A stretch of 64,000 nucleotides of DNA, taken from NCBI GenBank assembly GCA_026770025.1, contig JAMXDE010000059.1:186001-250000 (forward strand), read 5' to 3'. The notes below the pieces were generated by a model that did not search any database, was not told the origin of the DNA, and saw nothing but the letters and a program-made list of their open reading frames with translations. Both the position numbers and the translations under genes were made by a program. This document shows, piece after piece, positions 44,499-63,195 of the stretch. The stretch is from Craspedostauros australis (taxonomy: Eukaryota; Bacillariophyta; Bacillariophyceae; Mastogloiales; Achnanthaceae). Every line of letters starts with the position of its first letter. Position 1 is the stretch's first letter.

Positions 44499-44565
44499 AG
44501 GGAGTAAGGCGAAAGGTGAGAGAGAAGGACGGTGATGATGGATATTATGTTGTCGATGCGACAAT

Positions 44566-44572
44566 GGAAGGG
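44566..44572 (+). other. Polypurine tract of element E
   Basis: GGAAGGG directly before the right LTR, in the context GATGCGACAATGGAAGGG shared with D. Confidence 0.75.
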
Positions 44573-45318
44573 TGTTAGGAATTGAGGGTACGACTTTGTC
44601 GGAATACCCGTAATTGCCGCACCTCCCAACATTGTTCGTCACAGCTTTGTATATTATTCATCACATGTTCAGAGACTATTCGTCACACCTTTGTATACCA
44701 TGTCATTATGACTATGACTAAGCATACGGACGCGATTGATACCTGTATAACCGCGAGGAGGATAGCCTGTCCTCTGGTAATGTAAGGAAGACACCCACGG
44801 CGGATCAGGAGGTCCCGATACCACGCCAACCATGGCAACCATCCAGACGACGACGTCGATCAGAACAACATGTCCATGGGCAGGTGACGCACCTTCTTCA
44901 GAGGACAGCACATGCCTCCCCTGCGGACAAGAACATCCGCAGGTTTGGAACATCAGAAAGGATCAGAATATCCGCAGGTTTGGAACATCACCAAAGATGA
45001 CATCGATCATGAGACGACGGTGTCATGAGAATCAACGACGGAAACATGAGATAGGCAAATGCTCAAGACTGCAGATCCTACCATGCAAGCGTAGACAGCT
45101 ACGACGATGCAGAGACAAGGAAGCAAGAACAGAGCATGATGAACGAAGAGGGAAGCACCTAAGAAACAACAGGATGCCCCGTGTCGTTACCGCGACAGAT
45201 GCCTGTCAAGAAAACGAAATCGGAAGAGAAAGTGAGATTGTGCTCACAGTTCTAAAACGGTACAGTTTCTAACAGCAGATTAGATCTTAGTACTAACTAT
45301 AACCCCGGATTTCCAACA
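44573..45318 (+). repeat. Right LTR of element E, 746 bp
   Basis: It runs TGTTAGGAAT...TTTCCAACA and is followed by TGCATT, the right duplication copy. Confidence 0.92.
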
Positions 45319-47407
45319 TGCATTGTGAGACGTCGACGGTTGAGTTGATGGTGACAGCACTACCTGCATCGACAGGATCATTCACAGGTAAGTATAGAAA
45401 TAAAACTCATCTTTGATGCACGGACTTGTTCTCTGAACAACGCTGGTAAATGATGGAAACACTTCATTGCAACAGCTAATTCAACCACACGTACGTACGT
45501 ATAATACTGTAGTATACCCTAGTATATTCAATTATCTTCTATTATACTCTATTCTATCGTATCAGTAGTTCCATCTGATTCCTGTTGAACTGCAACAACA
45601 GCCACGAGAGTTTTTCATCCAACTGCGTGATCCTGTTGTGCTTTGCGGACGGCAATCACGAGAACAACTCCAAACCAGCAACAGCAAACCCCTGGTGATG
45701 CCATGCAAAACGCACTAATACATACCGATACGATACACCATCTCATTTGAACCATAAACTGAGCGTATCATGTGAATGCTGGACTTTTGACGAGAGTGAA
45801 CGTCGCACTTTAATCAACATTATTTGTATTGCCATTTCGGTCCGTACGACTACGTGTTGTGATGTCCAAAAACTCTAGGGGACACCCCTGCTTCATGGTC
45901 CATGATCATGCCCATCCCCGTCACATCCATCGTATCCGAGCATCCTATCGCTCTGAACGCTTTCGTATCCATTGGCTGGGCATGTATTGTGCCAGGTTTG
46001 CTCATTGTTCTCTCTCCAGCTTGCGATATGTGGAAATCTGGAGTTTCGACACCAGGCGAAAAACTCCGGTCCTCTGTCATGCAATCAAGACATTTCATGC
46101 ATCCGACCTTCGTTGCTACCGCCATGCAGCATCCCAGATCCAGTAGGATCCAGGCAACATAGTGGCGCAGCCGAAAGGGCTGGCGAGTGGATACCCATGA
46201 CGGGCGGCTTGGTTTTGCGAATGCCACTCTCGAATTGTTCGATGCTCCAAAACCAACCTCCCGTCGTTGGCGTCGAGAATGATCCTGGTAAACATTGGAA
46301 GTTCTCACTGGAATATTACTCAACCGATCTCCCAAGTGACTCTGAGTGCTTCTTGTATGGGCGGTGTGTCCATGTCGTAGATGTGTGGTGTAGCGCCCGG
46401 TCCCAAGCGACGGGCATCGGGTGCCGCCCCTACCCCCAAAAACTCTTGGAAACCACTTTTGCTTGTTGACGACGACGTATCCACCGCCGGATGGACGCCA
46501 AACTTCGTGGGTACCTCCATCATGATCCATTCCATACATCTTGCGCATCAATGGTGGTCGGAATGGTCTGTCTCGATCATACAGGCTCTTTTCCTTGGAG
46601 CAGATGTTGCGTCAAAACGATGGTTCTGATTCCGTTCGATATATCTCCGTCCACCGCTGGGTTATACATGCGATACCACACGTATCCATAATCTGTAAGA
46701 TTTCAGATCCGTCGACGTGCTTGGAAGTCCATATGGAGGTGTGGTACTTGCGGCATATTTGATGGCTGCTCTTGGTTGTGGTTTTGGGACGCCATTGTCG
46801 TGTGTTTGTGTGGGTTTCGTTGTTTGGACCTTTGGGGTTTAGTGAAGTTGAACATTTAATGAACAAATCCGCATACAGTTTCATGTTACCTGGTTTGTTC
46901 CTTGTGCTTCTACGTCTCGTTGAGAATTTGAGCACGACAAAGCACGTCAATCCGTGCGAGGTTTCATGGAATACGCGAGCTCTGTTTCCGTGACTGCAGT
47001 ACAACACGGGAACAAATGGAAAGTCATATGTAATAAAATTTATACCACGATTACCGCTACCAAAAAAATTGTTTTCAGGAGGAGGAAATCACGAACAAAA
47101 ACAAGAGAAGGCTCCGCAAATCAAGCTAGAGAGAGGGCGTTGCTCTCCGTTCAAAATCTGGCGACGAAAGCGGAGAATGCAGCATCGTCCCCACCTCCGG
47201 CCATGTTGATCAAACAACAATAAAAAGCGCACTATACGTTGTATTGGTATGTAGACTACCACACAAGACAAAACAGAACACAATACAACACAAATCATCA
47301 TCTGTGTTGTTCGCTGCTGATGTGATCGTTATCCATTGGCTTGTTTACGTGAATTGGACAGATCTGGAAATGGGACCATTATTGTACTCCTCGCCATCGG
47401 CTTTTGT
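45319..47407. other. Unique region downstream of E, no gene called
   Basis: 45480-45570 is A+T-rich with repeated TAGTATA / TATTATACT words. Frames exist on both strands at about 45830-46550 (for example a 233-codon minus frame), but overlapping frames look equally plausible and none shows a known motif. No terminal repeat matching the right side of the transposase-like gene at 47589-51302 was found. Confidence 0.35.
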
Positions 47408-47628
47408 TCAACCGGAAGCAGGCGATTCTTCCTCGCTTTCAAGCACCATACCACCATGCAGAACAAGGATGCCGCTCTCATCATAATCCGGATCATTTGG
47501 GTCTCCTCCTGCCCAGGTGTCCGGGTCGGTCAACTCCATCAGATTTTGATCGGCTTCCACAATGTCCAACGGTATCATGTCCTCCTCTTCAACCTCGTAT
47601 TCCTTGTTGTTCTCTTTGTTCGCATTTG
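47408..47628 (-). pseudogene. Out-of-frame acidic C-terminal tail of the transposase-like gene
   Basis: Shifting one base near 47625 relative to the 47589-51302 frame opens about 72 codons of clearly protein-like, acidic sequence (EEEDMIPLDIVEADQNLMEL, then DPDTWAGGDPNDPDYDESG) ending at 47408-47410. The shorter frame ends abruptly after QGIRG. A one-base indel in an older gene, a small unrecognised intron or programmed frameshifting would all explain it. Confidence 0.5.
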
Positions 47629-50600
47629 TCCAATTTCTCTAGCTCTTTCAAGTACGTTATCGCACGCTTCACTGGACCTGCCAGGAATGATTTGATGAAT
47701 GCTATGGTTGTCTTCATGCGTCCTTCCCAATCAGCAATCAGAGGTCCTTTCAGCAAGGCATCGTACACGACGTACGCCGTCTCTCGTTTGTCTTTATCTT
47801 TCTCACCATCGATCTTCGCCCGACAAATGATCTCTGCGACCGCCCTCGACATGAGGGGTGCCTTCTCGGACGATGCCGCGGCTTTCTGAGCTGTGGTGAG
47901 TTTCGGCTTGTCTTGGAAGGTCTTCGCCCAACCAGCTCGACAATTGGCTGGGGCATCTTTTGTTGCGCCGTCCTTGTATGATGAACGAGGCGGGACCACT
48001 TCTTCCATTGCACGCTTCCTCACACCCTTACGCCAGTCTATTGTTTTGGTGCGGTCCTCGCCTCTCTTTCGTTTCGAGCTAGTTGGCTTCTTGGTGGATT
48101 GCGCTGCTTGCTCTGTGGATTGTGTGGCTGTTGCCTGGGTGGATTGAGCAGCATCTTCCGAAGAATCGTTGGGTGCTGCCGAGGTGGATTGCGCGACCTG
48201 CTCTGTGGATTGTGCGGCTGCTATCTGGGTGGTTTGAGCAGCAACTTCCGTACATTCGTTGGCTGTCGCCTGGATGGAATGGGCGGCCGCAACCTCCGTG
48301 GGTTGAGCAGCATGTTCCGTAGATGCGTTGGATGCCGTCGAGGTGGATTGAACGGCTGCTGCCTGGGTGGAGGGCGCCGCTTGCTCCGTGGATTGTGTTG
48401 CTGCTGCCTGGGTGGATCGAGCAGCATCTTCCGTAGATTCGTTGGCTGCTGCCTGGGTGGATTGCGCTGCTTGCTCCGTGGATTGTGTGGCTGCTGCCGG
48501 GGTGGAATGTGCAGCCTGATTCGTGGAGTCGTCGGCTGCTGCAGGGGTGGAATGCGCTGCCTGATTTGTGGAGTTGTCGGCTGCTGCTGCAGTGACTTTC
48601 GCCGCCTGCTTCGTTGATTTCTTGGCTCCTCCTGGCTTGATGACGAACGCAGCCTCCACTGGCTCCACCGTGCCCTTCAAAATGCTCATCTCGAGGTTCT
48701 GCATGTAGTACTTGTCGAGGTGCTTGTCCACCAACACTGGATCTGATACATCCGACAACGCCGTGACTTTGACACTGCCGTTACGAAAATCCAACTCATG
48801 CGTGGCGCGAGTTTTGGGTGGGATGGTGGTGGAGAATGTTGTTTTGCGCGTTGGATCGACTGGGAACAGAAGCGGCGCTTGCAGGTCTTTTCCCTCCAAC
48901 AGCAACGTCACGCTGCCTTTGATCTGCTTCCCCACAAGAATATTGAACACATGCTCTTCCGTTTGTGATTTACCGTTTTCGGATCCGTCAATGTACCAAG
49001 TGAGACCTTTATTGATGTAGCTGAAGTGCGCATCCAGCAGGCCCTTGCCTGTCTGGGCCTCCGTAAACAGCCATCGGATGATTTGATGAGATGGTCTGGG
49101 CAGTGCGTTGGCGCTGTTGATGGTCTCCACCTCCGCTTTGGCCGCAGCATAGACTTCTTCTGTCTTGGGATCCTCGGCTTCGGGATTGAATGCGACGCCC
49201 TCCTCCCCGCGATTCCGCCCATGAATGTATCGCATCAGCGACGGACTCGAGAAGCAGCTAGCATTGTCACTTTGTATCACGATTTCTGTCCGATCAGGGT
49301 GCATCTTGGGCAGGATCTTCGTCATGAGCAACTTGAGCGCTCCAGCAACCTGCACCTGGTCCTGTGAATGGTAGGTTTTGATGAGCAGATCCACGAAACG
49401 ATAGTGATAGGCACCATCTTCAAATGTAATTGTCATCATACCCAGCAACGACATACCTCTCTTCCCAAAGTATTCAGATTGGGCCTCTTTGCTGCAGATA
49501 GGCAATATTTTCTGCTTGTGATCGAGCACCACCATCATCTTGCGCGGATTGTGCTTCAGAGATTCCTTCTCCTCCCGAATTGCCTTGAATTGGACCATTG
49601 CCCTCACTTTGTGACTCATGTATACTCGAAGCTGCTCCTGGCAGATAAGGACAGCCCCAAACATCGTCTCGACTTCTTTCCTGTTCTCTTCGCCTCGAAC
49701 ATGCTTGATGGCACGGCGCAGAAACTCTTGGACACGGACTGGAAAGAAATCGTGGATGTCTGCGCAACGTTCGCACACTTTCTCGGTGTGGATGTCATAG
49801 TCGGAGCGGAGCGCATATTCACACGGATGCAGCATGTCGAATACGGAACGAAGCTTCATGTGCGAATGGGTGTAGTCCCACTTGACAAATGCGAAGATTT
49901 CGTTCCAATCTTCGACAATCCTTCCTATCTCGTCGCGAAGCTCCTTCCTGCTGTCATCCTCGCCAAGCTCCTTCCTCCTGTCATCCTCGTCAAGTTCCTT
50001 CATGCTGTCATCCTCGCCAAGCTCCTTCTTCCTGTCAACGCCGCCCAGCAACACGCCGAGTCTCGTAAACATATCCGAAAGCTTCACTGATACTTCCATC
50101 ATGTCAACGTAGTAGGAAGACAGGCCCGTTTGGCACTTGCCACGCCTGGTCAGGAGCGCGAATATCTCTCGGAATGTGTTGTACCCCACCGGCTTGTTCT
50201 CAACGCTCATCTTGTACTTGCGGAACAACCCTCTCACGGAGTTTTTGCCGCGCAGAAACACAGGCAATCCTTCGTAGACGATGCCATGCATTTTCACCGA
50301 GCGCGATGTGCCGGGTTTGTAGTGTGTGACTGAGGTGAGAAAGGAAATCAATTCCTGCAGCTTTTCCTTGCAAAGACGGGTTCGCTTTCCCTTGAGCGGG
50401 AACTCGGCTCCACCAAGAAGCTTGATTGCATCCTCCATTGCGTTGTTGTAGCAGACATGCCACAGGTTCGTGCGCATGGAATCGACCTGTGCTCGCTGTT
50501 CTTCTGAAAGCTTGTCTGCGTGCCCGCGGAGAATTTTTGCGCAGTCTTCGCGGCTGGAGGTGTGGGCGAGGATTGCGCGTCCCATTTGTGCCACGTCGTG

Positions 50601-51302
50601 GCTTCCAAAGAATATCATCAGACAGACAGTCTCCTCCAATGTCGTTGATGGCAACTGTTGGTCCTCTCGCACAAACTTCATGACTTCCTTCAGCTGACGA
50701 AGAGGCGTCGTGTTCGAAAAAAGTATTCTGGATCCGACAGCGCTCAATTCGTTCCAGGCCCGGGTGATCACTGACCACATTTGTGATTGTAATTCGGTGT
50801 TGTCTGGGACCTTCACGAAGCCGTTGTTTGGGAAGTCTCTCAAATAAGCTGCGTGCCTTTGTCCTTCGGCGAGAATAGAGATCAGCTTGCTTTTCATCGT
50901 TTCATCGGCGTCCGATTCGTTGCCGTTATCTTCGGCTTGGTCATAGTCGCTGTCGTTGTCGTCGCTGTCGCCGCTGCCCTCCTGTTCGTCGGACCTGAGT
51001 TCGAGGACACTCATCATCTCCGCGTCTGCGCTTGGGTCTGTCGACTCTGCGTCATCGAGGATCTCGACATCGCCCTGGACATCAGCATCATCATGTGGCT
51101 CATCGTGCGGCTCCTCCTGAGCACGTTGCTCAGCCACATCAACGTCACGAACTGCGCCAGTGCTTGCGTTGTTGGTGATGGTTTGGTCATGACTGTTGCC
51201 GATGTCATTGTTGGTGTGATGGCTGTCCTTGACAGGCGTGTCGGTCCCTGCCGGGGTGTCTGTTGCATCGAGCGTCTGGTTGTCAATGACCTCCATTTCC
51301 AT
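47589..51302 (-). CDS. DDE-transposase-like protein, diverged homologue of element F's protein (1237 aa)
   Basis: It has an acidic N-terminus (about 1-150) and a middle region shared with the F protein (LLTRRGK-x2-TGLSSYY). A Cys/His segment (HPCEYAL...CERC) is also shared, followed by YMSHKVRAMVQF. The candidate catalytic residues are D594 (VLDHKQKILP), D679 (QSDNASCF) and E748 (TEAQTGKGLLDAHF). About 30 extra residues lie between the last two compared with F. Residues about 900-1090 are a degenerate repeat of Ser-Thr-x-x-Ala-Ala units, followed by a lysine-rich stretch and a C-terminal helical domain also shared with F. A KELGEDDS-type decapeptide is repeated near 49940-50040. The function as a transposase is inferred from the acidic triad and homology to a TIR-bounded element. 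No terminal inverted repeats were found for this copy, so it may be an eroded element or an exapted gene. Confidence 0.75.
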   Translation of the reverse strand: MEMEVIDNQTLDATDTPAGTDTPVKDSHHTNNDIGNSHDQTITNNASTGAVRDVDVAEQRAQEEPHDEPHDDADVQGDVEILDDAESTDPSADAEMMSVLELRSDEQEGSGDSDDNDSDYDQAEDNGNESDADETMKSKLISILAEGQRHAAYLRDFPNNGFVKVPDNTELQSQMWSVITRAWNELSAVGSRILFSNTTPLRQLKEVMKFVREDQQLPSTTLEETVCLMIFFGSHDVAQMGRAILAHTSSREDCAKILRGHADKLSEEQRAQVDSMRTNLWHVCYNNAMEDAIKLLGGAEFPLKGKRTRLCKEKLQELISFLTSVTHYKPGTSRSVKMHGIVYEGLPVFLRGKNSVRGLFRKYKMSVENKPVGYNTFREIFALLTRRGKCQTGLSSYYVDMMEVSVKLSDMFTRLGVLLGGVDRKKELGEDDSMKELDEDDRRKELGEDDSRKELRDEIGRIVEDWNEIFAFVKWDYTHSHMKLRSVFDMLHPCEYALRSDYDIHTEKVCERCADIHDFFPVRVQEFLRRAIKHVRGEENRKEVETMFGAVLICQEQLRVYMSHKVRAMVQFKAIREEKESLKHNPRKMMVVLDHKQKILPICSKEAQSEYFGKRGMSLLGMMTITFEDGAYHYRFVDLLIKTYHSQDQVQVAGALKLLMTKILPKMHPDRTEIVIQSDNASCFSSPSLMRYIHGRNRGEEGVAFNPEAEDPKTEEVYAAAKAEVETINSANALPRPSHQIIRWLFTEAQTGKGLLDAHFSYINKGLTWYIDGSENGKSQTEEHVFNILVGKQIKGSVTLLLEGKDLQAPLLFPVDPTRKTTFSTTIPPKTRATHELDFRNGSVKVTALSDVSDPVLVDKHLDKYYMQNLEMSILKGTVEPVEAAFVIKPGGAKKSTKQAAKVTAAAADNSTNQAAHSTPAAADDSTNQAAHSTPAAATQSTEQAAQSTQAAANESTEDAARSTQAAATQSTEQAAPSTQAAAVQSTSTASNASTEHAAQPTEVAAAHSIQATANECTEVAAQTTQIAAAQSTEQVAQSTSAAPNDSSEDAAQSTQATATQSTEQAAQSTKKPTSSKRKRGEDRTKTIDWRKGVRKRAMEEVVPPRSSYKDGATKDAPANCRAGWAKTFQDKPKLTTAQKAAASSEKAPLMSRAVAEIICRAKIDGEKDKDKRETAYVVYDALLKGPLIADWEGRMKTTIAFIKSFLAGPVKRAITYLKELEKLDKCEQREQQGIRG

Positions 51303-51326
51303 TGTTGGCGGATCGGGGTTTTGGAC

Positions 51327-52469
51327 TTAAAGACTTGCATGGTCGGTTGGTTCGTTCGTCGCAGCGTGTGTTGGTGTTGTTGTTGTTGTTGCTGCTGCTG
51401 TGGACGTGAAGTCATTGGTTCTGATGGCTGATGCAACAAAGCAGTCCATGCAAAGTCCCAAATCAATGCCGTCTTGGAAGCAACAAGCTAGAGTACAGAA
51501 GTGCTCGTTGCATCCGACACACCTCATGATGCCAAAACGGTTGCGCTGTCCTGGCTTTGTGGTGGTGGTGGTCGTGGTGGTCGTGGTGCCGGCAGCAACC
51601 GCGGGTGGGGTGGCGAATTGATGGCTGTTGTGTGCGACTGCGCCATGTTCTTGCGACGGATCGCGCTGCCCTGGTTCAGTGGCAACTCCACTCATGGTGG
51701 AATGCGCATTGCCGTCAGAGGAACTTGGAGGATTATCAGATCCGAACTGGGGGTGAGTAGCAGGTGGCGTGAGATGCATCTGCAGTTGCATGTGCGAATG
51801 CTGCTGCAGTTGCGTGTCCACATATGGTTGAGCAAGTGAAGTATGTGGCTCTGCTCGGAGTGGGGATGGCGATAGTGGAGACCCACTGTATGCCGATTGC
51901 TGCCAATACGTTTGTCCAGCCGCATATTGTGGTGCAGGTGGTGAAGAGTATGCGGTGTGATAATGTTGATCATGTGCTCTGCCACTGTACGCATACGTGC
52001 TCTGGGGTGGTGATGTCACAGGGTGCGAAGATCGTGGTGGCATTCCATACAGGTACGGCGGCGCCTGCGTGTGTGGCACCCCGTGCCATGGTGGAGGCAA
52101 GTACTGTGGTGGCATCCGATGCTCTGGTGACGGCAGAGGAGGTATTGCAGGAGGGGAGAAGTACGGTTGAGAATCACGCAAGACAGATGCCCCAAAACTG
52201 GAGGCCTGTCTGTGGGGGGATGGTGTGTTGATCTGGTACCCCGAGTGATGCTCAAAGGTACCATCGTGAGCACGATGTCGTTTGTGTGGCGGAGACCTTC
52301 TGCCATAGTACGGTGCTCCTCCAAGTGCACGATTCATGGTGCGAAGGGGACGATTCCAGGTAGTTCGGTCTGTATGTGTGAAAGTAGATGGCTGTGCTGG
52401 TGGTGGTGGTGTGTGCTTGTGATTGTCTGTTGTTGCTGCTGGTGTTGCTGTTGGTGATGAATCATGCAT
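51327..52469 (-). CDS. Proline/glutamine-rich protein with a C-terminal cysteine cluster (380 aa)
   Basis: Residues 1-300 are low complexity and rich in Pro, Ser, His, Gln and Tyr, as in disordered regulatory proteins. A run of about ten Thr precedes a compact cluster at C317-C343 (CVGCNEHFCTLACC-x9-CMDC), which could bind one or two zinc ions. A Thr/Ala-rich tail follows. It ends only 24 bp before the start of the transposase-like gene on the same strand, so the two may be expressed together or be exons of one gene. I do not recognise the family. The F element has no equivalent ORF. Confidence 0.55.
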   Translation of the reverse strand: MHDSSPTATPAATTDNHKHTPPPPAQPSTFTHTDRTTWNRPLRTMNRALGGAPYYGRRSPPHKRHRAHDGTFEHHSGYQINTPSPHRQASSFGASVLRDSQPYFSPPAIPPLPSPEHRMPPQYLPPPWHGVPHTQAPPYLYGMPPRSSHPVTSPPQSTYAYSGRAHDQHYHTAYSSPPAPQYAAGQTYWQQSAYSGSPLSPSPLRAEPHTSLAQPYVDTQLQQHSHMQLQMHLTPPATHPQFGSDNPPSSSDGNAHSTMSGVATEPGQRDPSQEHGAVAHNSHQFATPPAVAAGTTTTTTTTTTKPGQRNRFGIMRCVGCNEHFCTLACCFQDGIDLGLCMDCFVASAIRTNDFTSTAAATTTTTPTHAATNEPTDHASL

Positions 52470-55159
52470 CGATCATCTCTAGCATTGTCCCAAACGAAAG
52501 CACTCCAGATCACCAAGTATCCCACGCTTCCCGTGGAAGCTAGTGTTGTACTTGACCTCTCACCAACATCGTGACTGGGTATCTGTCAACGTGGAAGCTC
52601 ATGACCAGAGAATCTGCCATGTTCGATGTGCCTGTTTGTCAGGGGGGGAAAATCGATTGGTTGGGATAGCCAGCCCTGATCCGAGATTGGATGGATGCGA
52701 GCAGTTACTCGTAACGGCAGACAAGGCCCTTAGCCAATCATATCGCTTGAAATACGTCAAGGTGAGGGGGAATTCCTAAATTCGAAGACAAAGTATCCAG
52801 TTGAACCGAAGACATATGCACCCAAATTTTGTCTCCAGAATGTCTCAGTGATATCAATTGGGGGCCACTGCAACCCGCCAATTCGCTGCTCCGTGGGCGA
52901 AAGCCTCGTGGAACAACACCACACAAACAGTCCAGCCGATGTCGCTCGCGTGCATGTCGGAAGGAGACGAAGGTGCAGCTCTCCAATGGTGTCGCACACG
53001 AGGGTGACAACGAGAGAGCCAGAGACAACGAACAGCTTCTACACTCATCCTTGAGTGAGGTATCAGTCTGGTACATCAGCACTTGTCATCTCTCGACACC
53101 AGTGGGAAGCAAAGTCGACATCTACAACACGAACAACACAACCAACTCCGTGTCAGCACGCCCTCAACTGTAGGTTCGTGCGGCGGCTACAGCGACCGTT
53201 TCCATCAGAGATGGAAAGAATGTCATCATCTCTGCGATTCAACGGGACCTCCCCTCACAGACCCAGACTTTCCACGCAGATCAGCACAAAGATGCATCCT
53301 GCAACCCACCCTGGAGAGGTTTCCTGATGACACACCATATGACGAAACAGAGAGAGGCGAACGGAGGCAAGGTACATCGCCATTGCGAGCTGCGAAAACC
53401 AGTCCCTCGATTTCCCCCTAACACGCGAGTGAAGCAAAGCCCGAAGTTGACGAGAACGCGCTAAGAGGATGATAGGAACCATGTGGCAACCGTCATCCTC
53501 ATCTCCACTTTCTCTCTCTCTCTCTCTCTCTCTCACGCAATTCGCACTTCAGGAGCCGCTTTCCATCCTTCCAGCTCCCTTTTCGTGCTGGCGTCAAAAC
53601 TTCCCCTTGGCTTGGTATCTATCAGAAATCCGCATGTATCACCTCTTTGCAACATGCACACAGGGACGTGTGTGTACGACATGGTCGAATTCGGAATGCT
53701 ACTCTGCGTGCCTGGACAAGCAAGTCGTGGCCCATGCCAGTTTGATCGGCGTCCTACAAGCGCGTCTACATAGACAAGTACTCTACGACCCGGACAGTTC
53801 TACCAACTCGCGTGATGGACATGGTGCCACATGGTACCATATGTCGGGAACAACGCCGACGAACCTCCATCGGGCGCCTCAGAGGAGAAAGGAGAGGGCA
53901 ACATTGACAACCTGTTGGGAAAATGACTTCAAGCAAGAAAATAAGCGTCAAGCGGATCGGAACAGCAAAAGCATTTCCTACGATACGTACCTATTACAAT
54001 TATTTAGTGTACCACAATACCAGGTAGATGCAACCAAGCCATTGTTACAGTAACAACATACAGATCTGGAATAATGTGCTGCAGTCTTCCACCAATCCTT
54101 CATGGACACATTCTGGGCGCATTGGTGTGCAGTGTCGTTGGTTGAATCAAAGGTGTGTTGTCCCCGTTTGCGGCAACCACACTGCGAACTGAAATGCTGC
54201 ACCACGGAAACGAACGGAAATGGAAACGATGCCGTCGTCTCGTTTGGCACTCCTATGCATCAGATATAACGTCTGGCCGCGGACCATACGAATATAGGCT
54301 GATAACCCATGAAACATGATTGGTGCAAAGGGTTCCACGTCAGTGTCGCGATGATATTTCTGTCGTCACAAGGCATGGGTACAGCGAATTGAAATGAAGG
54401 AAAATAACGTTAACGTTAAATATTGCAAGAAACGATAGATATTTTTGTCAATGCAGTGTCAAATATGGTTGTAAGGCGTTAAATTCAAATCACCCAAAAC
54501 ACACAAGCTTCCAACAGCGGCAAGCAGCGAGTGCGTAGCAGCTTGGACGACCCAGAAGTCATCGTTAATTCTAATGATGCATGCTTTAATCTCCCCAATG
54601 ATATAACTAGAACGAATACGGGTACAATAGATATGAGAAACCCATTGTGAATAGCTAAGAACATGCTAGAATCATATAAACTAACGAGGTTAGACCCTCA
54701 TAGACTGTTGGGGTTAGGGTTAGGGGGCTTGGGGTTCGGGATGCCACCACCAGGCAACATCAAATGAGCAGCGCACCGCTGTTCCGGAAGCCGAGCAAGT
54801 CGTGGAAACCATGGGCGCCAATTCTGCAACGGACAATGACATGTCGTGTTGGACTAGCTTCCCACTTTTTCAAACACTGATTGTCGAACGGGAACCCCAA
54901 TCTTTCCCGAAATCCACGCTCAAAAGTATCAAAACAGTGACGTCTGTACGTCGCCGCCAAATTAGTTGTAGCCTTACCTCAAAACTAAAATTAAAATAAC
55001 TTCTGAACTAAAGGAGATAGGGGGGGGGGGTCTTGAGGGTTGTGTAGGGTCCTCACATATAGGGCTATCGATGTGTGAAGTTTAAGAGGCAGCAATTTGG
55101 AATCATCGGGGAATATCCATCGATCCTGTTGAACCCGGGTCGTATGACTGCATGAGCTT
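52470..55159. other. Intergenic region with CT microsatellite and weak open frames
   Basis: A (CT)n tract lies at about 53510-53534. Frames such as 53469-54053 on the plus strand run through that repeat and have no recognisable motif. 54400-54700 is A+T-rich and contains the palindromic AACGTTAACGTT. A run of G occurs at about 55021-55030. No gene is called. Confidence 0.4.
54709..54731. repeat. Short telomere-like TTAGGG stretch
   Basis: TTGGGGTTAGGGTTAGGGGG holds about three imperfect units of the TTAGGG repeat used at telomeres of many stramenopiles. It is too short to say whether it is a former chromosome end, a repair scar or chance. Confidence 0.4.
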
Positions 55160-55471
55160 ATGGCTGTTTACGCACCTCGACCGTACCTGTTGCCCATGAA
55201 AGCGTACCACGGAAGGGACATGGAGTCGAGTGACACGCTCGTCAAGCAGATCGACAGAAGTCCGTTCGACCCAGATCGCGCCATTGCATACATGCAAGAG
55301 TCTCTGCATCTACGAGCTACATGGACCCATAGCCAAGTCCTCGTGATCAGAATGCAGCTGAAGTATGGTGAACCCTGCATTGAGGCGATTGCATTTTGCG
55401 ACCTTGACACTTCCACTTCAGAATGGCATCACAAGGAGGCTACTACTTTTGATGTTCATAGTGCTAAATAG
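55160..55471 (+). CDS. Hypothetical protein, 103 aa
   Basis: The frame has balanced composition and reads like a globular protein (YAPRPYLLPMKAYHGRDMES, then DPDRAIAYMQESLHL), unlike the low-complexity frames around it. No known motif and no signal peptide were seen. The frame after its stop continues with protein-like text in another phase at about 55530-55780, so it may be an exon or a decayed gene. Confidence 0.25.
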   Translation: MAVYAPRPYLLPMKAYHGRDMESSDTLVKQIDRSPFDPDRAIAYMQESLHLRATWTHSQVLVIRMQLKYGEPCIEAIAFCDLDTSTSEWHHKEATTFDVHSAK

Positions 55472-55814
55472 AGTGTTATCCACGTGGGATCTACCTCATG
55501 CTTGTGTTGATGCATGATGCAATGGTCCAATGGGTATGTGTATGTATCTCGTTCATGTTCACTGGGAAATCCTCTCTGATGATCTTCCTCTCGAAATAGT
55601 TGGAAGTGATGTCGTACTCACATGGTACCATGGGAGTATATTGATAGAGTGTGCCGAGTCTCTGTTTGGTTTCACCCAGGCGATCGGCATGGATCTGTCC
55701 CAACAAACTATGGGGCTGTCGGCTTCGATGTGCGCGACGTCTTCGCAGTTGTCGATGCACGCGAGGTATGGCGTGGTAGGTTGGGGAGGGTCGATTGGGG
55801 TCTCTGCCGACTGG

Positions 55815-56318
55815 TTACCTGCGAGTCAGGAACTTCTTGAACCCCCGTTTTTTCTTGGACTTCTTGTCTTTCAGGATGACCATCATATCCGCCAAGTCGC
55901 GTCTTATTTCGGCCACCTCTGCTTTCAAATCCTCGTTTTGCTTGATGAGCGTCGCGTTTTGATCTCGAAGGGCTTTGTTGTCCTTTTCAACGGCTTCCAA
56001 GCGCTTTCGCAGTGCGTCCGCCTCCTTTTTTTGCTTTCGGGTCTGTTTGTCCTGCTCTTCCATGGCTTTCAAGCGCTTTCGCAGTGCATCCGCCTCCTGT
56101 TCTTTCTCTCGAAGCTTTCTGTTCTGCTCTTCTTCGGACCCATGATTGCTGTTCTTTTTTCGTGCCGTGCTGCCTGCTACGGCACCAAGCGTGCCACCAC
56201 CCAAGCCACCCCACAAGGCACCGGCGAGGGCACCTACCGGGCCACCCATCACGGCACCCATCATGGCACCTTGGGCGGCACCACCCACCGCTCCAATCGC
56301 AGCGTTTGAATCTGTCAT
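55815..56318 (-). CDS. Glycine-zipper plus coiled-coil protein (167 aa)
   Basis: Residues about 6-50 are small and hydrophobic with repeated GxxxG/GxxxA spacing (GAVGGAAQGAMMGAVMGG, then ALAGALWGGLGGGTLGA), typical of glycine-zipper membrane segments. Residues about 58-150 form a charged heptad-like coiled coil with two copies of an EADALRKRL module. The C-terminus is strongly basic (KKSKKKRGFKKF). The layout suggests a protein that inserts in or packs against membranes and oligomerises. The family is unknown. Its Met start is followed at once by the conserved-looking glycine segment. The opposite strand also carries a long frame, but it lacks such structure. Confidence 0.5.
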   Translation of the reverse strand: MTDSNAAIGAVGGAAQGAMMGAVMGGPVGALAGALWGGLGGGTLGAVAGSTARKKNSNHGSEEEQNRKLREKEQEADALRKRLKAMEEQDKQTRKQKKEADALRKRLEAVEKDNKALRDQNATLIKQNEDLKAEVAEIRRDLADMMVILKDKKSKKKRGFKKFLTRR

Positions 56319-57371
56319 GTTAGCGGGGGTTGCTATATACGCTTGCTTCGCTGTCTCTCGTGTGTGAGGCTGAGTGCTGTCTTCTACTTGTTGTCGAGTT
56401 CAATCGTCTGTGCAACTGATTAGAGGGAAGAGAAGAGGGGACGATAGTTTAGATTCTGAAATTATGAGTGCTAGCAATGGCATGAACAACATGTGGCACC
56501 TCGCGAGGTAGTTTGAAAGAGCAACGCGAAACATATAGCAGTAGGTACAATACATACGGTGAAGACAGTTCCGAAAGGATGCTCGCACCCTCGGGCCCAG
56601 TCGACGTCATCAGAACTCACGTGTTCTGACGGATGCAGGTTCCTTGATTCCTTCCTTCTCCCCCTTGGTCGCACGCCCCAGATGCCTGTCCACGCCACAA
56701 CTGCACTTGCACTTATGTTGAGATTTGGATCCTGGGTTTGCATTTGCGCTGGAACAAGGCCACGCGCGTCGAGAACTGAGACACAGAGATCTCCATTTGG
56801 TTGTTGCCTGCTCTTGCCGACTATCCTGTGTCCTGATGAGTTGGAGCCTCTGTTTCCTATCTCTGTGGCTGATCCGCAACGGACGAAACGAGAGGCTGAG
56901 CAAGAAAAGTATGGATTACAACCACTGCCAGAGCCAAGAGCATACGAGTGCCTTCCACGCATCTTGGAAGCGTCATGTGTGAGAATCACACTGTTTCGAG
57001 GTCGGCCGCGCATACCGTCGCGCAGTATGGAACCAAGCAAGGAGGTCGCATGCGCAGCAAGCCCTTCAGATACGGACGATCCAACCGATTCCGACATCAT
57101 GTTCGCACCCTCAATTCCAGACGTCACGAGAACACTGACGTGTTCGGATGGATTCTTGTTCTCGATTCATTGCTCCTTCCTTGGTCGCATGGTCTTCCGA
57201 AGGAGGGGTTTGGCGTAGAACCAACTTGTGCATTCCATTGCTGCTCGTGCAATGCAGAGAAACACTTTTGCCACGAGATGAGCGGATACGCTCATGTCCA
57301 AGGGCGGCCAACACCAGCAACCAGAGAGGAATCCCCACGAAGGAGTAGATTGCCGTCTCTTTTCCTGCTCT
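56319..57371. repeat. Region with a degenerate direct repeat and a possible C2-domain relic
   Basis: About 100 bp near 56577-56690 and 57095-57195 resemble each other (TCGCACCCTC..., ACGTGTTC(T/G)GA(C/T)GGAT, CCTTGGTCGCA). On the minus strand the segment near 56700-56800 reads GDLCVSVLDARGLVPAQ, like the first strand of a C2 domain, but the rest of the fold is not convincing. This may be a duplicated, decayed exon. Confidence 0.25.
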
Positions 57372-58067: not shown

Positions 58068-58130
58068 GTTGTACTTCATTTGGTCTTGGGTTGCGATGGC
58101 ACTCCGAGGTCGTGCTCGGTTGGTCGATAG
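58068..58130 (-). repeat. Possible distal piece of element G's 3' LTR
   Basis: If F is removed, the LTR that starts at 63195 would continue here. TGTTGTAC at 58068 on the plus strand would be its terminus, giving the same ...CAACA end seen in the other copia families. The boundary is inferred, since the second LTR of G is outside the window. Confidence 0.25.
58127..58130. repeat. Target-site duplication ATAG, left copy (element F)
   Basis: ATAG lies directly before the left inverted repeat and again directly after the right one at 62996-62999. Confidence 0.75.
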
Positions 58131-58270
58131 GACCCACTTGAGTGACGGGACCTGCAGTCGGTCCTGAGGGGGTGGGAAGATACGGGGCTTTCGACCAAGC
58201 CACCCACATATTAATAAACTAGAAACAAATATAAGAATCATAGTGGACGCCGATTTTGGTTTAATGTCTT
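58131..58270 (+). repeat. Left terminal inverted repeat of F
   Basis: 140 bp from GACCCACTTG to TTAATGTCTT. The strand labels here mark the two opposed copies. Weak similarity continues about 13 bp further inward. Confidence 0.93.
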
Positions 58271-59127
58271 GGTTTAATTTTTATCCATATTTGTAGATTT
58301 ACGGTCCACTTGGTCGAATATGCACGCTGCTCCGTCATGATTGCAAGGCATTGATTAGCTTTTCCGACGCAAACAACGCAATGTGCGCAGACACGTTCGG
58401 GAAAGAACTTTTTTTGACGGGTTGCGTACGGAATTTGACATTTCAGCGACGTCATTGTTCGGCCTGTCCGAACACGTTTTTTAAATAACTAGACGTTACG
58501 AGGCGTTACCATTCAAATTCAAAATCTGACTCTCGTCACAGGTCGCGAATCTCCTCACATTTTGCCACCAAATCGAGTTTTGCTTTTTGTGGTGGTGTGC
58601 GGTGCTTGTTGCATGTTCATGTAGTGTTTGTATCGTCACCTTCTTGCACCCCTCCTGCTCAGTCCACTTCCATCACTAGTAGTCTTCTCCATCTACCCAT
58701 CAGTACCAATCAGCATCATGCCTGACCTAGACTGAAAACTAGCTGGAATATCCTAGTCTCCCAATTCAGTCCAGTCATGTATCTACTGTTGTCAGTACTG
58801 GATCGAGTCCGGTAACGTCCGTAACTGAGACAAGTCAGTCGAGTCCAACCATGCCAGACTGGACTCAGTCGTATCTGCGATGTCAACATATGGAAACATG
58901 CGACCACCAAAACTTGACGCCAAAACATGGAAGCAAATAAATGGGCGACCAGGTGGCGCAGGTTTGGAATTCAGGCGTGGTTCTTGGAACAGGCACGGAT
59001 TAAGCAGAGGCGGCATGGCAGAGTGCGCTACTTGTGGAGTAACGCAAAGTAGAGCAGGTGGAGGCAAGAAGGAAGGAAGGTAATCATAATCTACAATTAT
59101 CCCTCAATCGTCTTCTGGTATAAGGCA
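58271..59127. promoter_or_regulatory. Leader/promoter region of F with AGTCC / GGACT motifs
   Basis: The 857 bp between left TIR and ORF contain no gene. At about 58735-58870, words AGTC, AGTCC and GGACT recur in both orientations, including TCAGTCCAGTC and GACTGGACTCAG, which can pair. Such subterminal clusters often bind transposases; here that is inference. A core promoter was not identified. Confidence 0.4.
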
Positions 59128-62100
59128 ATGCCCGTCTCTACTATGAAAGCTGCGTCCAAGAATGCCAATCCTTCTCCTTCCAAGAAGCAGCGTTTGCCAT
59201 CCACTCCATCCGTGCACCCCTTCCCATCCAATCCGATTGATCACAAAGAACTGTTTGTGCCATCTGCTGCTGAGAAGCTGTTGCCTCCGCTGGATGTAGA
59301 TGGTAAGCAGCACACTGCGACATCTACAACAGACAAGTTCTTGCCTCCTGTGCTGAAAGGCGCGACCTTCGACTACGAGTGTGACGTTCAGATCCAAACC
59401 AACAATGACGAGAATCGCACACTCCACGCAACGAACAAGAAACTCTTTGTTCGCGTGCACATCACCACCGACAACGGCATGATTCTTGACACCTCCAAGG
59501 TCACAGTGCAGGCCTTTGGACAGGGCTCCAACGCCGGGACAAAAGTGCAGGTCAAAGTCTGTGTCCCAACTCCTCCAACTTTCCCTGCACTCCTTCCCGC
59601 ACCCCTTCCCGCACCGACTATCCAACCAGCAACGAAAGGCAAGCGCATGCAACACCGCAAGGCTAGCGACGACAAAGCCTTCCGCCCCAACGGACGCAAG
59701 AGAGTCAAGAGCGGGAAATCTCACTCTGGAAGATTCCAACCCAAGCACAACATGAACAAGACAGATGCGTTTCAAATCATGCACAAGGTCTTGCAGAAGC
59801 TCGGAGTGAAACAACTTGCGACTGTGCTGGCCGACTTTCCTCGTTGCGGATTTGTATTGGGGCGCAAATCTGACAAGCAAGTGTGGAGCAAAGCAAAGAA
59901 GATCTTTGCGGTGGCCTCCAATGCGCTGTGGAAAGCACTGATTCCGGCAATGAACTTGCCAGTTCCTCAGATGGAACAGGTGGTGGCATTCGTGCGTGCA
60001 GGGGTAGACTTGCCGCCTATCAAGCTGGCTCCCAATCTCTACACAATTTGCCTTGTCGGCGAGAAGAACATTGCACGCACAGCAAGGTGCATTCTCTCCA
60101 TGTCTGCCTCGCCACGCCAATGTACTAACCTCCTCTCGCGACACAAGAGCGAACTTCCTGACGATCAGCGTCTTCGCCTCTTGCCAGAGCAATACACCAT
60201 CACGCGGGGCCAGCTCCTCACTCTGCGCAACTACTATGAGCTCTTGCGCGAGGGCAACGTGTTTGGTGCTGCTGTTCACGACTATCGTGTCAGCGCATAC
60301 AGCTTGGCCGGTGTGGTGTCCTTCATCAGCAACACAACCACATACAAGGCAGGCCTTTGTCACAACATCAAGTGGGGAGGGGTGATATTTGAAAACGTGC
60401 CAGTATTCGAACGTGGCGGAACGAGCGTAGACGAGCTGTTCCACATGTACAAGACTACGACGAACAATCCAGTTGGCGAGCCAGCATTCCGAGCAATGAC
60501 GGGCCTGCTCACACGCAGAGGCAAAGTTATTACTGGTCTCTCCTCTTTTGAAAACTACTTCTGGATGGCAACAAAGACGCTGAAGGAGATGCTCGTGCGC
60601 TTGAATACCCTACTCGAGGATTCGTTCAACGGTGATGACGGACATGACGACCTAACTGTGGAGTATATTCAAACCTGTGAGACATTGTTGCGCGATCTGG
60701 ACCTTATGATCACATTCCTCAAGTGGGAGTATACCGCGTCGCACATGCAGATCAAGTGCGAAGAAGACCCGATGCACTGCGCTCATTTCGCCCTTCGCAA
60801 GGATTCAACAATGAAGCAGGCTAAGTCTACACTTGGCACCAAAAACACAACAGTGCTTGCCAGCACCAACACGACATGCACTGTCATTGATCCTCCTACA
60901 GCAACCACAGAGCGTGATGCCAACGTCCTTCCTCTCATTGCTCACGATCAACAAGGCAAAGTATGCGACAGATGTGGACAAGTGATGCGCTTCATGGATG
61001 ATCGCGTCGCACCATTCATCGAGACGCTCAAGGCCAATCATCTAAGCGACCACGCAGATGAACTACACACGATGCTGGAAGCGGTACCGGGCTTCAACAA
61101 CGAGATCACTGCATACATGGCACACCGAGTTCGAGCAAAGGTTCAATTCAATCAGATGAACAAGTACAAGGCCAAGATCAACAACAACGATAAGTGCGCC
61201 TATGTCGTCATCGACCATAAGCAGAAGATTCTGCCAACAGCACAAGGAGAATCGCAGACAGAGTACTGGGGCAAGAAGGGCATGTCGCTGCTTGGTGTCA
61301 TGATTGTCACTTGCAAAAATGACGAATTCACCTATCGCTTTGTGGACATAATTGTTCATGGCCGTCCCACCCAAGACACGCTTCAAGTTGGAGGACTACT
61401 CAAAATCATCCAGAAGAAGGTACGCGATCTCCTGCCATCAGTGACAGAAATTATCCTGCAGTCGGACAACGCGGGATGCTTCGCCAGCCATGAGCACATC
61501 GCGCTTGTCTCATCACGGATTAACAAGGACGCAGCAGCCAAAGGGCTTCCCCAATTCATCATTTGGATCTACACAGAAGCCCAAACCGGCAAAGGGCGAA
61601 TCGACACTCACTTCGCCTACATCACTATCGTACTACGATCCTACGTGCAAAGCGGTGGCAAAATTCAAACCGAACATGAGATCTTCGACGCATTGCAAAT
61701 GGGAAATATCAGAGGCACTACAACTGTCTTGGTTGACGCGTCGGGTTTGGAAGGTCGCTGTGTGATGCACAAGACGAATTCACGCATGAGGTTCCGCGCA
61801 AAAGGCATGAATGTGCGATCAACCCACGAGGTCCGGCACGGAAATGGCTACGCAGACTTGCTTGCAGCTTCAAATGTCACTGCTCCAGTACGTGTGGAGG
61901 AAACCGAATGGGATGACTACAACATCATGAATTCTGACGTTCCTATCATGATAGAACACCAGTCCACACAAGAGCCACTCGCAGCAACATCACCGAGGAA
62001 GGAGAAAAAGACTCTCAGGTTTGCGAAGAGTGCCACCGAAAGCAAGGCACTGACGTACCTCGAAGCAATCAACATGGCAGCCTTGGAGACCCCTGATGTA

Positions 62101-62721
62101 AGTACTGTGCTACAGGACACCACAGCAACAACAGAACACCCGCGATTGGCTGAACCTGGCTGGGCTGCAAAAGCTGTACGACGAAACGAGCCCATTCGCC
62201 CCTACCTTGTGAACGTGCTGGAAGAGGTTTGCAGAGTGGCACGTGCGGATCCGAAGAACAGGCCAACGGAGTACGAGGGATACCGGCGGTGCATGGAGAC
62301 CACGGAAATGAAGACTGACTGGTGTGCACGGGTACACGTGAACCCAATGCGAGTGAAGCAGTACATGTCCGCTTCATATCAGCGCACGAAACCGAAGCCC
62401 GCGAACATCCGTACCCCGGAAAGTACGATCAAACGAAACGCAACGAACGCAACGAACACATCGAACACATCGAACACAAAAATTCCCCCACTCCCAACGA
62501 ACGCAAATAATGCTGATGCAGGAATCGTGCCTGCACAACAAACAAGATCAGAAGAGGAAGAAATCGCGCTGCGACAAGAAGAAAACGAAGCCTCGGAGCG
62601 AATTGCGTGCGAGACACACACGATGAAGGAAAATACGGAATCTCCTGACTTGGTGGAACAAAATGTGAGGACACAATTGTTGGAACGTGTCAGAGCCGCA
62701 ATGGAGGGACTAAAAAAATAA
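59128..62721 (+). CDS. DDE-transposase-like protein of element F (1197 aa)
   Basis: It is the presumed transposase. The N-terminus has Lys/Arg-rich stretches (about 8-22 and 172-212) suitable for nuclear import or DNA binding. Residues about 215-520 share blocks with the gene at 47589-51302 (TRRGKVITGLSSF). A Cys/His segment includes H550-C551 (MHCAHFAL) and C613-x2-C616, followed by YMAHRVRAKVQF. The core reads D696 (VIDHKQKILP), D780 (QSDNAGCF) and E817 (TEAQTGKGRIDTHF), spacing D-x83-D-x36-E, with further conserved D826 and H828. A C-terminal helical domain (about 1010-1090) is also shared. Residues 1110-1130 contain a short Asn-Thr repeat. Gene and TIRs together support autonomous cut-and-paste movement. 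The superfamily is not assigned. The first Met is used; another Met six codons in is an alternative start. Confidence 0.85.
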   Translation: MPVSTMKAASKNANPSPSKKQRLPSTPSVHPFPSNPIDHKELFVPSAAEKLLPPLDVDGKQHTATSTTDKFLPPVLKGATFDYECDVQIQTNNDENRTLHATNKKLFVRVHITTDNGMILDTSKVTVQAFGQGSNAGTKVQVKVCVPTPPTFPALLPAPLPAPTIQPATKGKRMQHRKASDDKAFRPNGRKRVKSGKSHSGRFQPKHNMNKTDAFQIMHKVLQKLGVKQLATVLADFPRCGFVLGRKSDKQVWSKAKKIFAVASNALWKALIPAMNLPVPQMEQVVAFVRAGVDLPPIKLAPNLYTICLVGEKNIARTARCILSMSASPRQCTNLLSRHKSELPDDQRLRLLPEQYTITRGQLLTLRNYYELLREGNVFGAAVHDYRVSAYSLAGVVSFISNTTTYKAGLCHNIKWGGVIFENVPVFERGGTSVDELFHMYKTTTNNPVGEPAFRAMTGLLTRRGKVITGLSSFENYFWMATKTLKEMLVRLNTLLEDSFNGDDGHDDLTVEYIQTCETLLRDLDLMITFLKWEYTASHMQIKCEEDPMHCAHFALRKDSTMKQAKSTLGTKNTTVLASTNTTCTVIDPPTATTERDANVLPLIAHDQQGKVCDRCGQVMRFMDDRVAPFIETLKANHLSDHADELHTMLEAVPGFNNEITAYMAHRVRAKVQFNQMNKYKAKINNNDKCAYVVIDHKQKILPTAQGESQTEYWGKKGMSLLGVMIVTCKNDEFTYRFVDIIVHGRPTQDTLQVGGLLKIIQKKVRDLLPSVTEIILQSDNAGCFASHEHIALVSSRINKDAAAKGLPQFIIWIYTEAQTGKGRIDTHFAYITIVLRSYVQSGGKIQTEHEIFDALQMGNIRGTTTVLVDASGLEGRCVMHKTNSRMRFRAKGMNVRSTHEVRHGNGYADLLAASNVTAPVRVEETEWDDYNIMNSDVPIMIEHQSTQEPLAATSPRKEKKTLRFAKSATESKALTYLEAINMAALETPDVSTVLQDTTATTEHPRLAEPGWAAKAVRRNEPIRPYLVNVLEEVCRVARADPKNRPTEYEGYRRCMETTEMKTDWCARVHVNPMRVKQYMSASYQRTKPKPANIRTPESTIKRNATNATNTSNTSNTKIPPLPTNANNADAGIVPAQQTRSEEEEIALRQEENEASERIACETHTMKENTESPDLVEQNVRTQLLERVRAAMEGLKK

Positions 62722-62855
62722 ATTAGCCCTGCAATTGACATCGATAATTTGTCTTTTGGCGACACGAATCAAGGCACCAAGACACCAAATCTGGCCGTAG
62801 TGCGCTAGTCGTGTCTAGATGAGCGCAAAATCGAGGTGTCCATAAAAATCAAAAT
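62722..62855. other. 3' untranslated and subterminal region of F
   Basis: 134 bp between the stop codon and the right TIR. It contains GTCGTGTCTAG-type words. No polyadenylation signal can be proved. Confidence 0.4.
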
Positions 62856-62995
62856 AAGACATTAAACCAAAATCGGCGTCCACTATGATTCTTATATTTG
62901 TTTCTAGTTTATTAATATGTGGGTGGCTTGGTCGAAAACCCCGTATCTTCCCACCCCCTCAGGACCGACTGCAGGTCCCGTCACTCAAGTGGGTC
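62856..62995 (-). repeat. Right terminal inverted repeat of F
   Basis: 140 bp, ending CTCAAGTGGGTC; it is the inverted copy of 58131-58270 with one mismatch. Confidence 0.93.
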
Positions 62996-63195
62996 ATAGT
63001 TATCCAGATCCACGATCGATCCCGAATCTTCGCCGTGTTTTGATTAGACATAACACACAAGGAACATTGTTGAAAAAATGGCGCGCATGGTTCCTGGAGT
63101 CGTGATTGATTTGATTGAGGAACAAAATTCATTCACGACACAATTTGATCACTCTCAAGGTCACAAAGTATGCGTGTCATTGGAATATTCCCACA
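62996..63195 (-). repeat. Proximal part of element G's 3' LTR
   Basis: On the minus strand, TGTGGGAATATTCC starts at 63195, directly after a purine tract AAGGGAG (63196-63202) that follows the end of the G polyprotein. This is the expected place for a 3' LTR. F has inserted about 200 bp into it. The other LTR is not in the window, so the call rests on position and the TG start. Confidence 0.5.

What the first reader, a model, noticed from the sequence alone, without database searches (positions are those of the whole stretch)
58131..62995. Intact DNA transposon F with an unassigned DDE-like protein, 140-bp TIRs and a 4-bp duplication
Seen directly: 139/140-base terminal inverted repeats, ATAG on both sides, and one unbroken 1197-codon frame. 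The protein has D696, D780 and E817 in blocks DHKQKILP, QSDNAGCF and TEAQTGKGxxDxHF. I know related E-x3-GKG-x2-D patterns from poorly characterised eukaryotic proteins, and 4-bp duplications from Sola elements, but I cannot place F in a named superfamily. This is the best candidate for an undescribed mobile system in the window.
Basis: partly seen in the sequence, partly recalled or inferred. Interest (0 to 1): 0.85.

Follow-up and report, generated by a model that had tools for sequence, protein, structure and literature searches.

The report
Unassigned family of DNA transposons
The finding is a real, recently jumped cut-and-paste-type DNA transposon from an algal genome, one of a large and diverse set whose transposase matches no protein family we could search, so it may be an undescribed superfamily or an unrecognised branch of a named one.

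Summary
Window 58131-62995 is a 4865-bp element with inverted repeats matching at 139/140 bases, flanked by ATAG, with one open 1197-codon frame. Seven of seven other copies of the host LTR that I read show the uninterrupted site with a single ATAG. Of 27 insertions of F and its relatives, 21 have a perfect 4-bp duplication, all N-TA-N; 45 of 54 ends read GACCC. Inverted repeats are 140-162 bp. The protein belongs to a large set in this genome, with a second member in the window (47592-51302, minus). Open copies are under purifying selection (dN/dS 0.18-0.28). D696, D780, E817 and also D826 are invariant in 13 of 13 proteins, with an H-H-C-C cluster upstream. No Pfam, NCBIfam, PHROG or PDB sequence match is credible. 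The only structure model is unusable as a fold (mean pLDDT 33), although its secondary structure has RNase-H order. Each named superfamily with a testable defining feature fails at least one; homology to Sola could not be tested. Verdict: a real transposon group of a known mechanistic kind, superfamily unassigned; 'undescribed' is plausible but unproven.

The parts
58127..58130 (.). left target-site duplication ATAG
   Evidence: single ATAG in 7 of 7 empty LTR copies L010-L016
58131..58270 (+). left terminal inverted repeat (140 bp, starts GACCCACTTGAGTG)
   Evidence: 139/140 identical to the right end
58718..58722 (+). ATGCC, left duplication of the nested solo LTR
58723..59127 (+). nested 405-bp solo LTR (TG...CA) directly before the start codon; absent at that place in 20 of 20 loci L017-L036, present there in L062, L046/L049 (one locus) and L074, and truncated in L063
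59128..62721 (+). transposase-like open frame, 1197 codons plus stop; ATG regenerated by the ATGCC duplication
   Evidence: dN/dS 0.20 against L046
60742..60975 (+). stretch holding H539, H550, C613, C616: invariant H-H-C-C cluster, possible zinc site
   Evidence: 13 of 13 proteins
61213..61215 (+). codon of D696 (block IDHKQKILP)
   Evidence: 13 of 13 proteins
61465..61467 (+). codon of D780 (block QSDNAGCF)
   Evidence: 13 of 13 proteins
61576..61605 (+). codons of E817 to D826 (EAQTGKGRID): both acids invariant, either may be the third catalytic residue
62856..62995 (-). right terminal inverted repeat (ends GGGTC)
62996..62999 (.). right target-site duplication ATAG
47592..51302 (-). second member of the same protein group in the window (1237 codons from its first ATG), 258 of 864 alignment positions identical (30%), same blocks

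Best explanation
F is an autonomous DNA transposon. Its single protein is an RNase-H-type transposase that binds the ~140-bp inverted repeats, cuts at the GACCC ends and joins them to target DNA with a 4-bp stagger at N-TA-N sites, leaving a 4-bp duplication. Shown: element boundaries, empty site, 4-bp N-TA-N duplication over many insertions, one coding frame, purifying selection, invariant acidic residues. Inferred: the RNase-H fold, metal-dependent strand transfer, binding of the inverted repeats, zinc binding by the H-H-C-C cluster, and cut-and-paste rather than copying. The group is not assignable to a named superfamily with the libraries at hand.
For: Empty sites in 7 of 7 LTR copies read. 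21 of 27 insertions with a perfect 4-bp duplication, 21 of 21 with central TA. Two other families, 46% and 48% identical to F in protein, share the ends GACCC...GGGTC and have 161- and 162-bp inverted repeats. One search lists three F-family full-length frames without stops and 12 matches without stops (of 13) at 46-49% identity. dN/dS 0.18-0.28 in the six of eight pairs for which it could be computed. D696, D780, E817 and D826 invariant in 13 of 13 proteins, across two clades only 27-33% identical. Secondary structure in the order strand (D696), strand, strand, helix, strand (D780 next), helix, strand, helix (D826), as in RNase-H folds, though in a low-confidence model. A profile comparison with window Copia frames puts D780 on the integrase 'DN' block, score 33.9 against at most 25.8 in 200 shuffles.
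Against: The structure model has mean pLDDT 33 and pTM 0.27, so clustering of the acids in space is untested. The profile match to Copia integrase was not better than chance when only F-clade sequences over a wider stretch were used (score 23.8, 6 of 100 shuffles as good). No credible Pfam, NCBIfam, PHROG or PDB sequence match. 6 of 27 insertions lack a perfect duplication. Most F-family copies listed are broken by stops or incomplete. No excision or expression data.
Confidence: 0.86

Rival explanations
1. F belongs to a named superfamily for which no profile was searchable here (Sola1 or Sola3 are the likeliest), or to a group filed in Repbase but not in Pfam. It works as described but is not new.
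For: Sola2 elements make 4-bp AT-rich duplications (PMC3627910, passages read); a Pfam non-match says nothing about Sola if Pfam has no Sola model (recalled). I recall uncharacterised proteins of oomycetes and animals with similar SDNA and E-x-Q-x-G-K...D-x-H-F blocks; this comes from no call.
Against: Only 1 of 21 duplications (ATAT) fits the AWWT pattern given for Sola2.
Confidence: 0.45
2. F is a highly diverged branch of the integrase-like transposons (Ginger, IS3EU, IS481EU): zinc H-H-C-C domain, then the catalytic core, with D826 in the place of the integrase glutamate.
For: Invariant H-H-C-C before the core; D780 aligned to the Copia integrase DN block; likeness by eye of GKGRIDTHFAYI to NKRVERKFAYL of the window Copia integrase (printed); 4-bp duplication as in Ginger1 and most Ginger2, and the Ginger2 target RTATAY is also centred on TA (PMC2836005, passages).
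Against: 45 of 54 ends read GACCC and none TGTNR. No match to any Pfam integrase model at E up to 10. The profile match is not significant for F-clade sequences over the wider stretch. E817 is as invariant as D826.
Confidence: 0.25
3. The open frame is a passenger and the mobility is supplied in trans by another transposase.
For: No enzymatic test; the fold is unconfirmed.
Against: Purifying selection, invariant acidic blocks, and the same ends and target kind in families about 50% diverged in protein.
Confidence: 0.03

Closest known systems
Ginger2 (and Ginger1) DNA transposons
   Same: 4-bp duplication, long inverted repeats (about 50-180 bp in Ginger2, 40-270 bp in Ginger1), AT-rich target centred on TA in Ginger2, zinc H2C2 before a DDE core (PMC2836005, passages)
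   Different: Ends GACCC instead of TGTNR; target NTAN; protein not detected by Pfam integrase models; longer protein (1197 residues against about 500-800 in Ginger1)
Sola2
   Same: 4-bp duplications, AT-rich (PMC3627910, passages)
   Different: AWWT target fits 1 of 21 duplications; inverted repeats quoted there are 12-21 bp, here 140-162; transposase homology not testable
AcademX
   Same: 3-4-bp duplications (PMC10045372, discussion)
   Different: No nuclease domain match in Pfam
piggyBac
   Same: 4-bp duplications (PMC10045372, introduction)
   Different: TTAA is 0 of 21 perfect duplications; ends are GACCC, not CC...GG

Membership tests
DDE/RNase-H DNA transposon (broad kind) | terminal inverted repeats with target-site duplication | tested here: met
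DDE/RNase-H DNA transposon (broad kind) | three conserved acidic residues | tested here: met
   13 of 13 proteins, with a fourth invariant acid
DDE/RNase-H DNA transposon (broad kind) | RNase-H fold with clustered acids | tested here: inconclusive
   secondary-structure order fits, but mean pLDDT 33
Ginger1 / Ginger2 | ends TGTNR | tested here: not met
   45 of 54 ends GACCC, none TGTNR (feature)
Ginger1 | CCGG or CCGT target | tested here: not met
   0 of 21
Ginger1 / Ginger2 | H2C2 zinc finger and integrase-like core | tested here: inconclusive
   H-H-C-C invariant; no Pfam integrase match; profile comparison mixed
hAT, MuDR, P, Kolobok, Dada | C/DxxH motif after the second D | tested here: not met
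   no H of such a motif among the residues invariant in 13 proteins between D780 and E817 (feature)
CMCT (EnSpm, Transib and kin) | C(2)C and H(3-4)H between second D and last E; 5'-CA ends in most cases | tested here: not met
   one invariant C and no invariant H in that interval; ends GACCC (feature)
piggyBac | TTAA target and CC...GG ends | tested here: not met
   0 of 21 TTAA; TTAA from an abstract start in the listing, CC..GG
Tc1/mariner | 2-bp TA duplication | tested here: not met
   outer bases vary between insertions yet match on both sides; the empty site holds one ATAG (feature)
AcademX / AcademH | nuclease (AcademX), or helicase with 9-10-bp duplication (AcademH) | tested here: not met
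   no such domain in Pfam scans; 4-bp duplications; features
Zisupton (KDZ), Zator, Merlin, Dada | 8-, 3-, 8- and 6-7-bp duplications | tested here: not met
   4 bp (lengths)
Sola1 / Sola2 / Sola3 | transposase homology | not testable with these tools
   no Sola sequence or model known to me in the libraries; defining paper not held
Sola2 | 4-bp AWWT duplication | tested here: not met
   length met, pattern 1 of 21

The most novel reading that the evidence does not exclude
F and its relatives are an undescribed superfamily of eukaryotic DNA transposons, defined by a 1200-1300-residue transposase with an H-H-C-C domain and a D-D-E/D core whose D2-to-E distance ranges from 37 to 182, and in the F clade by GACCC ends and N-TA-N 4-bp targets. 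It is strongly amplified and probably still active in this genome, and one F lineage has taken a retrotransposon LTR as the leader, possibly the promoter, of its transposase gene.
Probability: 0.35. Interest if true: 0.68.

Novelty: new variant of a known kind. Interest (0 to 1): 0.52.

Why it matters
A transposase group with many open, very similar copies and no searchable family means that a sizeable part of this genome's mobile DNA would be annotated as 'unknown'. If unnamed, it adds a superfamily to the 23 counted in Repbase in 2022 (PMC10045372), and its N-TA-N target, long inverted repeats and open copies make it a practical candidate for an algal transposition tool. The 37-to-182-residue variation between the second and third catalytic blocks also makes it a natural test of how insertions in the RNase-H core are tolerated.

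Tried and rejected
Viral contigs: single-protein, core-only and alignment searches confirmed no relative (1, 24 and 82 pattern hits); a motif scan gave 4 hits, none a relative on translation. Prokaryote genomes: a motif scan gave 11 hits, none a relative on translation. PDB by sequence: weak matches (E 0.02 or more), mostly in the last third of the protein, to a bacterial toxin and to UBR4, judged chance and not followed. Pfam, NCBIfam and PHROG: chance-level only, best E 0.01 and below its cut-off. Literature: the capped listings show no title or abstract start on this group; the motif letters occur in 2 papers on unrelated subjects. The roughly 494-codon antisense frame inside the gene was considered as a second gene and rejected: in the same frame six related genes have longest open runs of 138-299 codons (L042 and L045 have 389-391 in another frame). 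A 2-bp TA duplication was considered and rejected. A fixed D-D-36-E spacing was considered and rejected. A first look for inverted repeats in L041-L043 and L041-L046 found true ones only at the edge of L045. For L041 and L042 the fetched stretch stops short of one end; L043 and L044 were not followed.

Full report
Observation. The element at 58131-62995 is exactly as described: 4865 bp, 139 of 140 terminal bases inverted, ATAG on both sides, and one ATG frame of 1197 codons. It has 61 matches to the chlorophyll a/b-binding family, and one translated member looks to me like a diatom fucoxanthin protein (recall, not a test; the PDB search did not settle it). The left flank is part of a repeat whose copies often lie in pairs 6383 bp apart, as the two LTRs of an LTR retrotransposon would. 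Of 39 other places listed I read seven (L010-L016); in 7 of 7 the site is uninterrupted with a single ATAG. This is an empty-site proof of insertion.

Copies and target. I fetched 20 further F-family loci, wider stretches of two other families with both ends (L047, L048), and the ends of 10 more elements found with the L047 repeat. For 27 insertions with both ends placed (15 F-family, L047, L048 and the 10), 21 have a perfect 4-bp duplication and all 21 have TA in the middle; TA makes up 3% of window dinucleotides. None has G or C on both outer positions. The six imperfect cases: L020 and L021 (near-identical loci, TTAT/ATAA) and L032 (TTAC/GTAA), whose flanks are reverse complements, which I cannot explain; L025 (TTAA/CTAA), L031 and L097/098, which match at 3 of 4. 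Loci L022, L023, L024, L028, L029 and L035 were left out because one end was missing or degraded. Of the 54 ends 45 read GACCC outside-in; the others are GAGCC (4) and single variants. Inverted repeats are 140 bp in F, 161 bp in L047 (96% alike) and 162 bp in L048 (82%).

Protein. A search of the genome with the F protein gave 49 matches (39 of 620 first-look candidates scored, so a lower bound). They include three F-family full-length frames without stops (window, C7, C58) and 12 of 13 matches at 46-49% identity without stops; most other F-family copies listed are broken by stops or partial. dN/dS could be computed for six of eight pairs of open frames and lies between 0.18 and 0.28: 0.20, 0.28, 0.25, 0.18 for closer pairs, 0.24 and 0.19 for two with dS above 1.4; the other two pairs are saturated. 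The protein is therefore under purifying selection. A motif match led to a second member in the window at 47592-51302, minus strand, 30% identical (258 of 864 alignment positions). A search with it gave 97 matches, many in frames of about 1260-1310 codons (37 of 5217 first-look candidates scored). The tree separates an F clade and a B clade at 27-33% identity.

Residues. In 13 proteins (14 aligned; L099, a 730-codon fragment, left out of the count; L100, L101 and L103 are 89-97% alike) D696, D780, E817 and D826 are all invariant, as are H539, H550, C613 and C616. D696-to-D780 distance is 84-85. D780-to-E817 is 37 in the F clade and 69, 81, 99-101 and 182 in the B clade (the script's figure of 742 for F is a false match to an earlier DHK and was discarded).

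Fold. One AlphaFold2 job with the two window proteins gave mean pLDDT 33.3 and pTM 0.27. It cannot be used as a fold. Its secondary structure is nevertheless in RNase-H order: strands 691-698 (with D696), 718-730 and 733-745, helix 752-764, strand 773-779 (D780 next), helix 788-805, strand 811-813, helix 826-841. D826 opens the last helix, where integrases carry their glutamate (established knowledge), and E817 lies in the loop before it. I lean slightly to D826 but do not claim it. A second job and a fold search were not accepted.

Relationship to integrases. A profile of the core (residues 640-880, 14 sequences) compared with four whole window Copia frames placed the SDNA block on the integrase DN block, score 33.9. 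The best of 200 column shuffles scored 25.8 (5 of the 200 covered that block at all), and the reversed profile 21.4. Over a wider stretch (520-905) the best match again covered the same block with F-clade, B-clade and all sequences (scores 23.8, 26.8, 29.4), but for the F clade 6 of 100 shuffles did as well; the other two had no shuffle control. This is suggestive only.

Classification. Features of named superfamilies were taken from papers: IS481EU paper (PMC10045372: abstract, introduction and discussion), Fanzor paper (PMC3627910, passages), Dada paper (PMC3706591, passages), TET/JBP transposon paper (PMC12730594, passages), Ginger paper (PMC2836005, passages), Repbase Update (PMC4455052, passages) and the Ectocarpus paper (PMC12477816, passages). 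The paper I know as the definition of Sola and the survey of catalytic domains were not held. Ginger fails on ends; hAT, MuDR, P, Kolobok and Dada on the C/DxxH motif; CMCT on its Cys/His motifs; piggyBac on target and ends; Tc1/mariner, Zator, Merlin and Zisupton on duplication length; Academ on its companion domains; Sola2 on its AWWT pattern. Sola homology could not be tested. I recall similar blocks in uncharacterised oomycete and animal proteins, which would make the group widespread; no call tested this.

The nested LTR. A 405-bp solo LTR with duplication ATGCC sits at the start codon so that the ATG is regenerated. It is absent from that place in 20 of 20 loci L017-L036, but present at the same place in C58, C7 and C12 copies, and a copy lacking its first bases lies there in a C24 element. 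All three full-length uninterrupted F-family frames listed carry it. The LTR tree groups the four complete ones (support 0.85). Yet over the gene the window copy is closer to seven copies without the LTR (L017-L025; 85-99% by stretch, mostly above 91%) than to C7 (81-92%), while other copies without the LTR are as distant as C7. Either recombination moved it or it inserted twice at one spot. A promoter role is a guess.

Verdict. The mobile element is real, recent, autonomous-looking and part of a large selected group. The mechanism is of a known kind. Whether the superfamily is undescribed remains open.

Noticed in passing
window 58723-59127: A 405-bp solo LTR sits exactly at the transposase start codon; all three full-length uninterrupted F-family frames listed carry it, and none of the 20 loci L017-L036 does. 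It may have been taken over as leader or promoter.
   Followed up: partly
window 47592-51302 (-): A second, 30% identical member of the same protein group; no long inverted repeats found within 43000-57000.
   Followed up: partly
L099, L101, L105, L106: Two carriers of B-clade genes are 99.5% alike over about 7 kb and stay alike to the end of the stretch fetched downstream, with repeats upstream of the gene; larger elements or duplicated segments with unknown ends.
   Followed up: partly
L020/L021 and L032: Imperfect flanks that are reverse complements of each other (TTAT/ATAA, TTAC/GTAA).
   Followed up: no
L020, L021 (C24): Two near-identical copies 9.4 kb apart with the same nested insertions and flanks: looks like a local duplication of the locus.
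   Followed up: no
L028: An F copy whose gene is interrupted by an element carrying the same 405-bp LTR, with a second LTR about 4.85 kb away.
   Followed up: no
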